Assembly: GCF_014695585.1 (NCBI RefSeq)
Contig: NZ_JACJON010000075.1
Span: 124,001-188,000, forward strand
Direction of reading: 5' to 3'
Origin: Microcoleus sp. FACHB-831
GTDB lineage: Bacteria > Cyanobacteriota > Cyanobacteriia > Cyanobacteriales > FACHB-T130
Length of the DNA: 64,000 bases
The notes beneath the pieces are model-generated. The model did no database searches. It worked only from the letters and a program-made list of their open reading frames with translations, and was not told where the DNA came from. This document shows, piece by piece, positions 1,746-5,798 of this stretch; the stretch's first letter is position 1, and the number at the start of each line of letters is the position of its first letter. A program made the translations under genes and the position numbers.

Positions 1746-2513
1746 TCAATCTGCCGCTTTTTCAGCATCAAGAAAGCAGCGAATAAAATCCCCATAAGCG
1801 TCTTTCATCGGCAGTTCCTCATCCACTTTCAACCGCCGCCGCTTAGTCACAACTGCTTTATTTTCAATTGGGTTAAAACCTTCTTTCTCGTATTCTTCCC
1901 AATACAAACCTACCCCCCGACGCTGCCAAGTAGGTAACTCATTAAAATTGATTCCGTGTTGAAACAGCAATTCATTCTTAAAAGCAGTAGACTGACCCTC
2001 AAGCGCCGCCGTAGCCGCAGCCTCACTTGCACCCGAAGAACGTAGCGTCCAGTAACACCAGCCATTTAAAGCGCAGCGCGTAGCATCAGCCTGACGCCAG
2101 CGAAAGTAATCTACCACCTGCGACTTAGAAGCACCCAGCCAGACGCGGCTATCGAAATTTACTATAGTTCCGCAGGCGTGGGTAAAAGTCGCACTGGCAA
2201 TGCTGGCAGAAATTGACACAACTTTTTCCAAACTGCGGTCAAAAAAATCCCAATTTGGACGAAACAGCAAGGATATTTCATCGCTTTCCGTATACGCATA
2301 GATGCCTTGCAATTGTTCCAGAAGGGATGAGGTTGTTTGCACCATTAGTTCGTGGAATCTTAGGTCAAAAGGCTTATCAAATTTTGACGACGCCGTAAAC
2401 CCCGAAAAAGAGCGACCATCTAGGCGAATTACTACCCAAACACCAGGCAACAAACGCAGCGAGTGGAAGTACTCCAAATCGCGCATTTGTTGTTCAAAGG
2501 TATCGTTATCCAT
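1746..2513 (-). CDS. Thg1-like 3'-5' RNA polymerase (TLP)
   Basis: The 255-residue product belongs to the tRNA-His guanylyltransferase (Thg1) superfamily, enzymes that add nucleotides to RNA 5' ends in the 3'-to-5' direction. The catalytic motifs are visible: IRLDGRSFSGF with Asp32, and TESDEISLLF with Asp78-Glu79, matching the metal-binding carboxylates of the family, followed by a DYFRWRQADATR motif near residue 137. The length fits bacterial Thg1-like proteins, which generally repair truncated tRNA 5' ends rather than add G-1. Its ATG overlaps the end of the upstream kinase gene by 8 nt, so the two should be translationally coupled. The fold assignment is strong; the RNA substrate is unknown. 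Confidence 0.9.
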   Translation of the reverse strand: MDNDTFEQQMRDLEYFHSLRLLPGVWVVIRLDGRSFSGFTASSKFDKPFDLRFHELMVQTTSSLLEQLQGIYAYTESDEISLLFRPNWDFFDRSLEKVVSISASIASATFTHACGTIVNFDSRVWLGASKSQVVDYFRWRQADATRCALNGWCYWTLRSSGASEAAATAALEGQSTAFKNELLFQHGINFNELPTWQRRGVGLYWEEYEKEGFNPIENKAVVTKRRRLKVDEELPMKDAYGDFIRCFLDAEKAAD

Positions 2514-2979
2514 CTATTACCTCATCTTCAATCCAATCAGAAACTTCAAAAGTCGATTTGCTAACAATTCGCACGTAGAACAATTTGTGAAATCCTTCCG
2601 CATAAGAGGGAGGTTCCAGCTTCTTAATTGTGCTGTAAATTGCCACATCAGGTACTCTGGCTTTACCCTGGCGTTGCTGATTGCGATCGCGGCACTGGCT
2701 CACTTGCGATTCAAAGTAGTAACCAACAACAGAGGCATCATACTTACAACCCAACTCAATTATTGACTTTCGCTCCTCTCTTGTTGGGTTGGTGTTATCG
2801 ACTACAACTGAAAGTTGAGCTTGAAATGCTGTTTCCATCAGTTGCGCTTGCCTCCTAGAAGGTTTTTTATTGTTAGGGAATAAGTCTTTGCTGATATGCT
2901 CGTGGTTTGCGGCAAAATGGGTGCTAAAAAAAGTGCTTTTGCCGCTACCTTGCAAGCCTATAAAAATAACTAACTCCAC
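2506..2979 (-). CDS. P-loop (poly)nucleotide kinase-like protein
   Basis: This 157-residue protein starts at GTG and opens with a Walker A motif (GLQGSGKST, residues 8-16). It also has the layout of small polynucleotide-kinase/Zeta-like P-loop phosphotransferases: VVVDNTNPTREERK near residue 60 as the Walker B-like Asp and substrate segment, and an Arg-rich lid around RDRNQQRQGK. Such enzymes transfer a phosphate from ATP, often to the 5'-OH of RNA or DNA. It overlaps the Thg1-like gene by 8 nt and lies 21 nt after the DUF1565 gene stop, so it may be read from that promoter. I infer that it prepares 5' ends for the downstream polymerase. A role on a small molecule cannot be excluded. Confidence 0.8.
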   Translation of the reverse strand: MELVIFIGLQGSGKSTFFSTHFAANHEHISKDLFPNNKKPSRRQAQLMETAFQAQLSVVVDNTNPTREERKSIIELGCKYDASVVGYYFESQVSQCRDRNQQRQGKARVPDVAIYSTIKKLEPPSYAEGFHKLFYVRIVSKSTFEVSDWIEDEVIDG

Positions 2980-3000: not shown

Positions 3001-5415
3001 TTAATTTAGCGGCTCGATAGTGGCTTTTAAAGCTTTGCTATTGAGGGTTTGCAGCATTTCTTCAGCGTAAATGCGATCGCTATAAATTCCCACTTGCAGC
3101 ACCCGCCGACCTTGAGAGACAACGTGAAAAGCATTAGGTACGAGGCTGCGTACCTTATTTTCTTCACCTCCATTTTTCGTATCGACCACAACCCGGTAAC
3201 GCATACCTCGCGCCGCTACAGGCGATGCTTTTCTGGTCGCAGCCACGTCGTCTTCAGGTGCGGTTCGGTTAGCCCCAAGAGGGCTAGAAATACGAGCCAT
3301 TCCAACAAAATTCTGGCTGTTTCCAGTGTTTGTAGCTGGGGTATTCTGGCTCAAAGTGGAAGAAGTGGAAATTCCTTGTTGAACGCCGGATTGCGTAGGT
3401 GTTCCCAAGGGTTGCTCGAATACTAACGAACGATTGATGTCGTTTTGGTTTGAGGTAGGTGTTGGTACGGGGATGTCAATTTTCGCTGGTTGCTGGTTGC
3501 TGGATGCGACTGGTGAGGAATTACCCAAGCTAGTTGGAACAGGAAAAGAGGAAGCCGAAACGCGAGATGGGCGGGGTAGCACTGGCGATGTGTTTGGTAT
3601 AGCAATACTGGCGCGATCGCTCGTTTGTGTAGGCTGTGAGGGTAAAGCAGTCGGTTGACTATTGTTGGCTATAGGGCGATCGCCATTTAGGGGATTGACG
3701 CTGCTAACGCTCGTTTGTGTAATCTGTGAGGGTAAGGCAGTAGGTTGACTATTGTTGGCTATAGGGCGATCGCTCGTTTGTGTAGGCGGCGAGGGTAAGG
3801 CAGTAGGTTGACTATTGTTGGCTATAGGGCGATCGCCATTTAGGGGATTGACGCTGCTAACGCTTGCTTGTGTAATCTGTGAGGGTAAGGCAGCACCCCC
3901 AGTATTGTTAGCAATAGGGCGATCGCTATTTTGAGAATTGGGACTGCTAACGCTTGCTTGTGTAGGCGGCGAGGGTAAGGCAGTACCCCCAGTATTGTTA
4001 GCAATAGGGCGATCGCTATTTTGAGAATTGGGACTGCTAACGCTTGCTTGTGTAGGCTGTGAGGGTAAGGCAGTACTTTGACTATTGTTGGCTATAGGGC
4101 GATCGCCTGAAGGATTATTGGTTGTTACGGGGTTTTTCGGGGTAAGCGGTGACGGGCTGGGGCTGCTAACAATTGCTTGTGTAGGCTGTGAGGGTAAGGC
4201 AGCACTTTGAGTATTATTTGCAATAGCGCCTGAAGAATTTCTCGAAGGCTGGTTATTGGCGATCGCCGGGGAGTTAGAGGGCTTTGAAGCAACTGGCTCC
4301 TGCTGTGCTTGTCTTGGGGAATTTTCTCCTCTGCTTGGCGTTGCTGTTACCTGGGCTGGGGTGGCGACAGGAGGGCGATTGGTTGAGACAGTTGGGGTGG
4401 GAATCGGGGAATTTTGACTTCCAGCCAAATCAAGCCGCCCATCTATTCGCTGACTCATCTGATTTCCAAAGGCTGAAAAAATCTGATTAACAGTTTTATT
4501 ACTAATATCGAAGCGACCGTTACCGCGAAAAATGTTGCCCCCAGGCTGACTGGAGATTCCCAAATCGGGACGCGACCAGTCGATCGCTACTAACCCATCT
4601 TCCTGGTTATTTTCAATAATGTTGTTTCGCAACACAGGTTGAGCGTTACCTTCTACCGCAACACCAGCTTTATTGTTGCTAATGCGATTGCCAGTTAACC
4701 GAGGCGCGGCATCCTGGGTAATGTTGAGCGCGTATCCCGTATTGGAAAACACATTATCGCGGACTTCTGGCCGCGATGTCCCAGATATAATAATTCCGTT
4801 GCCGCTATTGTCATAAAAATAGTTGCTGCGGATCAAGGGCGCACTATTTCCATTGACTGAAATAGCACCTTGTTTGCTGCCCGTGAAGGTATTCTCCACC
4901 ACTACAGGGCTGCTGGATTCAATCCAAACAGCATAGCCCCGCTGATTTGGATTGGTGATAGTGAGGCCAGTTATACCAGCGTGGGACGCGCCCACTATCG
5001 TAACGTCAACATCACCAGCAGTACGGCTGGCAAATATACCGCCCCCAGCAATAACAATATACTCACCTCGGGTGCGGGGGTTGCCCTGAATTGTCACGCT
5101 GGGTTTAAGCATCAGAGGGAAAGTTTCGCCGCCTGCTTTACTGTAGGTTCCAGGTGATAGGAGAATTACCGTGTTTTGCCCAGCCACGCGCAGCGCTTGG
5201 CTAATGGTTTTGAAAGGCGATCGCTCCATTCCAGTATTAGCTATGTCATTCCCCGTCGTTGGGTTGACAAATAACTTATTAACTTGCGACGCCACCTTCC
5301 CCTGGCTTACCGTCTGTGCCATCGCTGGCAAAGTGAAATCGAGACTAAAGCAACTAACGACAGGCACAAGAGAAGCCAAAACGCAGCCTGTGAAAATTTT
5401 TCTTAATTTCGCCAT
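3001..5415 (-). CDS. Secreted DUF1565 beta-helix protein with repetitive linker and SPOR-like C-terminus
   Basis: I place the start at the ATG at 5413-5415 (804 residues) because a signal peptide begins there (MAKLRKIFTGCVLASLV, cleavage near AMA-Q); the frame continues upstream but the added segment is not protein-like. After the signal come a DUF1565 domain (LFVNPTTGNDIANTG, SPGTYSKAGGETFPL) and right-handed beta-helix repeats to about residue 320. Next is a long Pro/Ser/Asn/Thr linker of near-identical units (SDRPIANNSQPTALPSQPTQ), and last a C-terminal segment of about 70 residues resembling a SPOR domain (YRVVVDTKNGG ... ILQTLNSKALKATIEPLN-like). It is probably a cell-envelope or surface protein. 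A related DUF1565 domain occurs at 21547-23640. Confidence 0.8.
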   Translation of the reverse strand: MAKLRKIFTGCVLASLVPVVSCFSLDFTLPAMAQTVSQGKVASQVNKLFVNPTTGNDIANTGMERSPFKTISQALRVAGQNTVILLSPGTYSKAGGETFPLMLKPSVTIQGNPRTRGEYIVIAGGGIFASRTAGDVDVTIVGASHAGITGLTITNPNQRGYAVWIESSSPVVVENTFTGSKQGAISVNGNSAPLIRSNYFYDNSGNGIIISGTSRPEVRDNVFSNTGYALNITQDAAPRLTGNRISNNKAGVAVEGNAQPVLRNNIIENNQEDGLVAIDWSRPDLGISSQPGGNIFRGNGRFDISNKTVNQIFSAFGNQMSQRIDGRLDLAGSQNSPIPTPTVSTNRPPVATPAQVTATPSRGENSPRQAQQEPVASKPSNSPAIANNQPSRNSSGAIANNTQSAALPSQPTQAIVSSPSPSPLTPKNPVTTNNPSGDRPIANNSQSTALPSQPTQASVSSPNSQNSDRPIANNTGGTALPSPPTQASVSSPNSQNSDRPIANNTGGAALPSQITQASVSSVNPLNGDRPIANNSQPTALPSPPTQTSDRPIANNSQPTALPSQITQTSVSSVNPLNGDRPIANNSQPTALPSQPTQTSDRASIAIPNTSPVLPRPSRVSASSFPVPTSLGNSSPVASSNQQPAKIDIPVPTPTSNQNDINRSLVFEQPLGTPTQSGVQQGISTSSTLSQNTPATNTGNSQNFVGMARISSPLGANRTAPEDDVAATRKASPVAARGMRYRVVVDTKNGGEENKVRSLVPNAFHVVSQGRRVLQVGIYSDRIYAEEMLQTLNSKALKATIEPLN
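3600..4230 (-). repeat. Tandem repeats inside the DUF1565 gene linker
   Basis: At least seven imperfect DNA units of roughly 60-110 bp, each carrying GGGCGATCGC followed by a TTG.GACTGCTAACGCTTG-like block, encode the SDRPIANN..ALPS..TQ linker. Almost every unit contains a HIP1 octamer. The array should change length easily by recombination or slippage. Confidence 0.8.
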
Positions 5416-5798
5416 TTGGAGTGCGGATAGGGGGGGGAAGGGGCATGGTAGAGATCTTGTCTGCAACGTCTCTAGGGCGATCGCGTTGTACGTGTGGGGG
5501 CGTCTTAAACTCACGGCTCTACTCCTGGGCGGGGGATTATTTAAACTAGGGACTGCAATCAGTCGATCATCTTCTATGCGAGTAAGTCTTGTCCCCAAAG
5601 GGAATCGCTTGATAAAGGTGTTTTTGTACGGTAATCTTTGGGTTCTAGTAGATTCCGCTGAGGGCTGCAACTTTCCAAGTTAGCAATTTTTAGCAATCCT
5701 TACAGCCAAATTTTTTGATTTTTAACTCTTAGCTAATCGCTATTTAAGTTTCGATAGAAGCATTTTGGTAGTATCGAGTAATAAGGGAGTAATTGCTG

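What the first reader, a model, noticed from the sequence alone, without database searches (positions are those of the whole stretch)
1746..2979. Overlapping kinase and Thg1-like reverse polymerase: candidate RNA 5'-end repair operon
Seen: a small P-loop kinase and a Thg1-superfamily protein with intact metal-binding residues (Asp32, Asp78, Glu79) overlap by 8 nt. Known: Thg1-like proteins extend RNA 5' ends in the 3'-5' direction, and polynucleotide kinases phosphorylate 5'-OH ends. Inference: the kinase makes a 5'-phosphate on cleaved RNA and the polymerase rebuilds missing 5' nucleotides, perhaps after tRNA damage by nucleases or toxins. No RNA ligase is next to them, so if sealing is needed it comes from elsewhere.
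Basis: partly seen in the sequence, partly recalled or inferred. Interest (0 to 1): 0.8.

Follow-up and report, generated by a model that had tools for sequence, protein, structure and literature searches.

The report
Cyanobacterial kinase–reverse polymerase RNA repair pair
Two overlapping cyanobacterial genes encode an enzyme that puts a phosphate on cut RNA 5' ends and an unusual backwards RNA polymerase that can rebuild missing 5' letters; the pairing is real and widespread, but it was predicted in 2010 and I found no published test of the pair.

Summary
On the minus strand of a cyanobacterial contig, a 157-aa polynucleotide-kinase-type P-loop kinase (2506-2979) overlaps by 8 nt a 255-aa Thg1-like protein (TLP, 1746-2513). 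Catalytic residues are intact in both.

The pair is not strain-specific. The kinase lies directly upstream in 33 of the 44 genomes of the order that hold a TLP, and in 58 of 83 related loci from about nine phyla. Relatives sit inside recognised RNA-repair cassettes: Hen1-kinase-TLP-Pnkp, RlaP-x-kinase-TLP-RNA ligase, RlaP-TLP-RlaP, and kinase-TLP near Hen1-RlaP-RlaP.

tRNA-His G-1 is encoded in this genome, and nearly all of about 80 tRNA predictions have a fully paired acceptor stem, so neither G-1 addition nor mitochondrial-style 5' editing is needed. The genome also holds its own Pnkp, several RNA ligases and three RtcBs.

One refinement: the kinase often outlives the TLP (25 kinase-only genomes of 61, ten with TLP debris), so it must also work without it. 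No biochemical or induction evidence was available here.

The parts
2506..2979 (-). [quoted passage not shown] P-loop GLQGSGKST (K14), Asp32 at the position of the PNKP kinase Asp, DNTNP motif at 61-65, R99/R103 lid arginines
   Evidence: PDB profile: mammalian PNKP 7.7e-19, Clostridium thermocellum Pnkp 2.5e-14, T4 Pnk weaker; AlphaFold model pLDDT 91 whose best 17 PDB matches are mammalian PNKP, C. thermocellum Pnk and two fungal kinases only; residues invariant in 79 relatives
1746..2513 (-). Thg1-like protein (TLP), 255 aa: palm domain (Thg1, residues 8-119) plus C-terminal domain (Thg1C, 132-224); D32, D78, E79, S77, R30, K97 intact; no HINNLYN motif
   Evidence: (best PDB match 5axk, Thg1-like protein, E=4e-34)
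2506..2513 (-). 8-nt overlap of kinase stop and TLP start (ATGGATAA), implying co-transcription and translational coupling
   Evidence: the same 8-nt overlap in several cyanobacterial relatives and 4-26 nt overlaps in other phyla
3001..5670 (-). Upstream neighbour on the same strand, 21 nt away: DUF1565 / right-handed beta-helix protein. Syntenic (thiE-DUF1565-kinase-TLP) in one cyanobacterial clade but absent elsewhere, so probably not a functional partner

Best explanation
A two-gene RNA 5'-end healing module. Shown: two overlapping intact genes, a PNK-type kinase followed by a TLP, conserved as a unit across many phyla. Inferred: RNAs (most likely tRNAs) cut on the 5' side by metal-independent RNases leave a 3' fragment with a 5'-OH. 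The kinase converts it to a 5'-phosphate. The TLP activates that phosphate with ATP or GTP and adds nucleotides 3'-to-5', using the intact 3' acceptor strand as template, until the stem is whole. When the missing part is within the acceptor stem, no ligase is needed because the lost 5' piece is resynthesised. When sealing is needed, the genome's own Pnkp, T4-Rnl-type ligases or RtcB could supply it. The kinase probably also prepares 5' ends for those 5'-phosphate-using ligases, which would explain its retention without the TLP.
For: Family and residue evidence for both enzymes. Kinase directly upstream in 33 of 44 TLP genomes of the order. Co-occurrence of kinase ortholog and TLP 36/8/25/224, Fisher p=4e-22, not corrected for phylogeny. 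Adjacent in 58 of 83 loci across Cyanobacteria, Chloroflexi, Myxococcota, Planctomycetes, Actinomycetes, Armatimonadetes, Acidobacteria, Deinococcus and a Lachnospiraceae MAG. Relatives inside RNA-repair cassettes: Hen1-KIN-TLP-Pnkp (L037, L039), RlaP-x-KIN-TLP-RNA ligase (L062), RlaP-TLP-RlaP (L050, L063), RlaP-KIN-RlaP (L152), KIN with two RlaPs (L160), KIN-TLP near Hen1-RlaP-RlaP (L173), TLP-RlaP (L175). Characterised bacterial/archaeal TLPs prefer 5'-truncated tRNAs (PMC6471195; PMC3701042). tRNA-His G-1 is encoded. The genome has 5'-phosphate-using ligases and a Pnkp.
Against: No activity, substrate or induction data. 25 of 61 kinase-positive genomes in the order sample lack a detectable TLP and 8 of 44 TLP genomes lack the kinase ortholog, so neither strictly needs the other. 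In the window itself no other RNA-repair gene is adjacent. Most relatives outside cyanobacteria are bare bicistrons with no recognised repair gene nearby.
Confidence: 0.72

Rival explanations
1. The TLP is a tRNA-His guanylyltransferase or a tRNA 5' editor that completes tRNAs whose genes lack correct 5' nucleotides; the kinase is incidental.
For: Family annotation; characterised bacterial TLPs can add G-1 to tRNA-His in vitro (PMC6471195).
Against: The single tRNA-His gene found encodes G at -1 opposite C73. All but a few tRNA predictions have a fully paired 7-bp acceptor stem by automatic pairing, so no general 5' editing substrate is visible. Most cyanobacteria of the order lack a TLP (249 of 293). 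The eukaryotic HINNLYN motif is absent (alignment).
Confidence: 0.06
2. The TLP mainly adenylylates or guanylylates RNA 5' ends (NppRNA), supplying an activated end to an RNA ligase rather than polymerising.
For: The TLP activation step makes such an intermediate; the alternative is raised in PMC2904730. An RNA ligase is adjacent in L062 and a ligase-like gene in L194.
Against: Residues tied to nucleotidyl transfer (R30, K97) are as invariant as those for activation in 79 relatives. RNA ligases make their own AppRNA. Most loci have no adjacent ligase.
Confidence: 0.08
3. The kinase is the main functional unit, a general 5'-OH RNA (or DNA) end kinase for Pnkp/Rnl-type sealing, and the TLP is an accessory being lost in many lineages.
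For: 25 kinase-only genomes, at least ten with TLP pseudogenes or fragments right after an intact kinase, including six genomes of one genus sharing a gutted TLP. Solo kinases next to RlaP genes (L152, L160).
Against: Tight overlap and co-inheritance of the pair across phyla, Mantel r=0.88; TLP active site invariant wherever both are kept. Compatible with the best explanation rather than exclusive.
Confidence: 0.1
4. The kinase acts on a small molecule or another nucleotide and the pairing reflects an unrelated pathway.
For: P-loop kinases of this fold include gluconate kinase and PFKFB, which appear lower in the structure search.
Against: All closest matches by curated models, PDB profile and fold are polynucleotide kinases, then L-seryl-tRNA kinase; neighbours in relatives are RNA-repair genes.
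Confidence: 0.04

Closest known systems
Thg1-polynucleotide kinase gene neighbourhoods (Anantharaman, Iyer and Aravind 2010, PMC2904730)
   Same: Same two genes side by side in bacteria; same proposed division of labour (kinase makes the 5'-phosphate that Thg1 uses); same suggestion of RNA repair.
   Different: No MACRO-domain gene was recognised next to the window pair and no RNA ligase is adjacent; the co-location of relatives with Hen1/Pnkp and RlaP, and the repeated loss of the TLP, were not in the passages read.
Bacterial and archaeal Thg1-like proteins (B. thuringiensis TLP 4kgk; M. acetivorans TLP 5axk; M. xanthus TLP)
   Same: Same domains and catalytic residues; a Myxococcus xanthus strain carries a 59% identical TLP with the kinase overlapping upstream (L204).
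   Different: Activity not measured for this protein; the Thg1-like protein of 4kgk (B. thuringiensis, PMC3701042) is much more distant (about 77 bits).
Kinase domain of mammalian PNKP and C. thermocellum Pnkp
   Same: Fold, P-loop, catalytic Asp and lid arginines.
   Different: Stand-alone 157-aa kinase with no phosphatase or ligase domain.
Pnkp/Hen1 and Pnkp1-Rnl-Hen1 RNA repair systems (PMC4411300, abstract seen)
   Same: A kinase heals 5' ends of cleaved RNA; some relatives of this pair lie within a Hen1-Pnkp cassette (L037, L039).
   Different: The window pair has no ligase, phosphatase or methyltransferase; it would rebuild a lost end rather than seal two fragments.

Membership tests
Thg1-like protein (TLP) | Thg1 palm and Thg1C domains | tested here: met
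   Pfam PF04446 110 bits and PF14413 59 bits, both over cut-off
Thg1-like protein (TLP) | Three metal-binding carboxylates | tested here: met
   D32, D78, E79; invariant in 79 paired relatives
Thg1-like protein (TLP) | TLP rather than eukaryotic Thg1: no HINNLYN motif; [quoted passage not shown]
   ATRCALN aligned with CHINNLYN of human THG1; tRNA-His gene has g at -1 and C73
Thg1-like protein (TLP) | Templated 3'-5' addition to 5'-truncated tRNA | not testable with these tools
   Needs purified protein
5'-OH polynucleotide kinase (PNKP/Pnkp kinase domain) | P-loop, catalytic Asp, lid Arg and PNK fold | tested here: met
   K14, D32, R99, R103 invariant; PNKP best by profile and fold
5'-OH polynucleotide kinase (PNKP/Pnkp kinase domain) | Phosphorylates 5'-OH RNA or DNA | not testable with these tools
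   Needs assay
Thg1-PNK operon of Anantharaman et al. 2010 | PNK-family kinase adjacent to Thg1 in a predicted operon | tested here: met
   8-nt overlap, same strand
Thg1-PNK operon of Anantharaman et al. 2010 | MACRO or RNA ligase gene in the operon (only a subset in the paper) | tested here: not met
   The window's upstream neighbour is DUF1565 and no repair gene was recognised beside the pair; ligase neighbours only in relatives. No MACRO model was run on every neighbour. Not a required feature.
Pnkp/Hen1 RNA repair system | Kinase-phosphatase-ligase Pnkp plus Hen1 at the locus | tested here: not met
   Window kinase is 157 aa with the kinase domain only; the genome's Pnkp is on another contig
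Known anti-phage defence system (PADLOC) | Match to a defence model | tested here: not met
   No match for the TLP; only weak P-loop matches for the kinase, E>=0.0025

The most novel reading that the evidence does not exclude
The pair is a ligase-free RNA repair pathway: after a cut near the tRNA 5' end the small 5' fragment is discarded, the kinase phosphorylates the remaining RNA and the reverse polymerase resynthesises the lost 5' strand from the 3' acceptor strand, in some lineages plugged into Hen1/Pnkp or RlaP cassettes as their 5'-end arm.
Probability: 0.4. Interest if true: 0.6.

Novelty: new member of a known kind. Interest (0 to 1): 0.35.

Why it matters
What bacterial Thg1-like proteins do in cells is still open (stated in the 2019 review PMC6471195). 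A conserved overlapping kinase gives them a source of 5'-phosphate ends and a concrete, testable pathway. Relatives that sit inside Hen1/Pnkp and RlaP cassettes tie reverse polymerisation to known RNA-damage responses. The operon and the idea have been in print since 2010, so the value here is extra context and a tractable cyanobacterial (or Myxococcus) test case, not a discovery.

Tried and rejected
Considered the TLP as tRNA-His maturase or 5' editor: rejected on encoded G-1 and paired acceptor stems. Considered a kinase-Thg1C fusion in one genus, where tblastn showed only the C-terminal TLP part after the kinase: reading frames show an internally deleted, stop-broken TLP pseudogene, not a fusion. 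Considered kinase-TLP fusions in high-GC genomes: no ORF carries both domains. Considered DUF1565/thiE neighbours as partners: they are simple synteny in one clade. Looked for defence-system membership: none. Looked for a kinase in one phage TLP locus: none annotated within 2.5 kb. A promoter/terminator scan around the genes gave counts within about 1.3 sd of shuffles, so nothing is claimed from it. The 2016 survey of RNA repair systems that I recall (doi 10.1093/nar/gkw722) is not held, so earlier notice of the Hen1/RlaP associations cannot be excluded.

Full report
What is there. On the minus strand, ORF 2506-2979 (157 aa, GTG) and ORF 1746-2513 (255 aa, ATG) overlap by 8 nt. The first is a P-loop kinase: AAA_33 E=2.5e-16, best curated families PNK-3'Pase and bacterial Pnkp. 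A profile of 14 relatives finds mammalian PNKP (7.7e-19), C. thermocellum Pnkp (2.5e-14), L-seryl-tRNA kinase and T4 Pnk in the PDB. An AlphaFold model (pLDDT 91) matches mammalian PNKP first, then C. thermocellum Pnk and two fungal kinases, with PFKFB and gluconate kinase lower. The second is a Thg1-like protein with both Thg1 domains; the best solved relative is the Thg1-like protein 5axk. All 79 paired relatives keep the TLP carboxylates D32/D78/E79 and S77, R30, K97, and the kinase residues K14, D32, D61, R99, R103.

Is the pair kept together? In the order, 44 of 293 sampled genomes hold a Thg1 match. The kinase lies directly upstream in 33 of these; in one it is 2.7 kb away, in two the genes lie on different contigs (one of these at contig edges), and eight have no kinase ortholog (adjacency counted by hand). 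In two of the 33 the TLP itself is broken (one stop, or a 57-aa remnant). Co-occurrence is 36 both, 8 TLP only, 25 kinase only, 224 neither (Fisher p=4e-22, not corrected for relatedness; kinase orthologs taken as at least 90 bits). In public genomes and plasmids, 58 of 83 closest loci have the kinase within 300 bp upstream, usually overlapping by 4-26 nt, in Cyanobacteria, Chloroflexi, Myxococcota, Planctomycetes, Actinomycetes, Armatimonadetes, Acidobacteria, Deinococcus and a Lachnospiraceae MAG. This sample favours close relatives and partly repeats the first. Kinase and TLP distances correlate strongly (Mantel r=0.88, no permutation of 2000 reached it), though shared descent of the genomes contributes.

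What keeps it company? In the window's clade the pair sits at a fixed chromosomal place next to thiE and a DUF1565 gene, which looks like old vertical synteny. Elsewhere relatives sit with RNA-repair genes: Hen1-kinase-TLP-Pnkp (L037 by Pfam, L039 by similarity), RlaP-x-kinase-TLP-RNA ligase (L062), RlaP-TLP-RlaP (L050, L063), RlaP-kinase-RlaP (L152), kinase next to two RlaPs (L160), kinase-TLP with Hen1-RlaP-RlaP about 1 kb downstream on a Deinococcus plasmid (L173), TLP overlapping an RlaP-like gene on a Thiodictyon plasmid (L175), a ligase-like gene next to the kinase in Limnoglobus (L194, similarity only) and RtcA upstream of a TLP (L200). RlaP is predicted to restore nucleotides lost before ligation (PMC7824862). 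These contexts are independent of the window and point to RNA repair.

What does the host need it for? The one tRNA-His gene found encodes G-1 opposite C73. All but a few of the 80 tRNA predictions have a fully paired acceptor stem under a simple automatic pairing (a couple of array entries are doubtful predictions). So neither G-1 addition nor 5' editing is required. The genome has a full Pnkp on another contig, four RNA ligases over the family cut-off and one weak match below it, an RNA ligase-HD/kinase-RlaP run, and three RtcBs, so sealing activity is available if needed.

How it most likely works. Characterised TLPs prefer 5'-truncated tRNAs and use the 3' acceptor strand as template (PMC6471195; PMC3701042). 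They start from a 5'-phosphate (PMC2904730), while metal-independent RNases leave 5'-OH ends (established knowledge). The kinase bridges that gap. Because templating needs the opposite strand, repair should be limited mainly to the acceptor stem, and there it needs no ligase. This mechanism is inference; nothing here measures it.

A refinement. The kinase outlasts the TLP. Of the 25 kinase-only genomes, six from one genus share a gutted, stop-broken TLP directly after an intact kinase, one has a frame-broken TLP and three keep only 20-40 N-terminal residues. Two kinase-only loci of the window's own family still sit in the thiE-DUF1565 place without a TLP (L138, L139). Conversely, G055 keeps the TLP in that place without the kinase (L033). 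So the kinase must have a use without the TLP, probably feeding 5'-phosphate-using ligases.

Compared with what is known. Anantharaman, Iyer and Aravind (2010) reported that the most persistent bacterial neighbour of Thg1 is a PNK-family kinase, with MACRO and RNA ligase genes in subsets, and proposed that the kinase makes the 5'-phosphate for Thg1 in tRNA repair (PMC2904730). I found no paper in the held library testing the pair, but most subscription papers and the 2016 RNA-repair survey are not held.

Verdict. Observation confirmed; interpretation supported by context but already published as a prediction; interest moderate to low for novelty, with a clean experimental test available.

Noticed in passing
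own genome contig C29:1360-8805 (locus L118): A dense array of 38 tRNA genes in about 7.5 kb, covering most amino acids, alongside a dispersed normal set; a few members have odd acceptor ends.
   Followed up: partly
own genome contig C37:68680-71922 (locus L165:7681-10923): RNA ligase, HD-domain/AAA_33 kinase and RlaP genes in a row: a separate RNA-repair operon in the same genome.
   Followed up: partly
own genome contig C60 (locus L164:5580-8255, minus strand): Full-length bacterial Pnkp (kinase-phosphatase-ligase, 891 aa).
   Followed up: partly
L144, L145, L146, L147, L149, L150 (one genus): Intact kinase followed by a shared, internally deleted TLP pseudogene that has lost the polymerase palm.
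   Followed up: yes
L070:7431-8216 (minus strand): A full-length TLP relative that has lost the first catalytic Asp (RLKVKN where others read RLDGRN) and has no kinase neighbour; possibly inactive or repurposed.
   Followed up: no
L207:4545-6005, L208:4533-6005, L221:4545-6005 (Actinomadura): The kinase ORF carries an N-terminal extension of about 330 aa with no Pfam match; it could be a fused domain or an over-long ORF in a high-GC genome.
   Followed up: partly
L062:6364-7350: A 328-aa protein without a Pfam match between RlaP and the kinase in a RlaP-x-kinase-TLP-RNA ligase cassette.
   Followed up: partly
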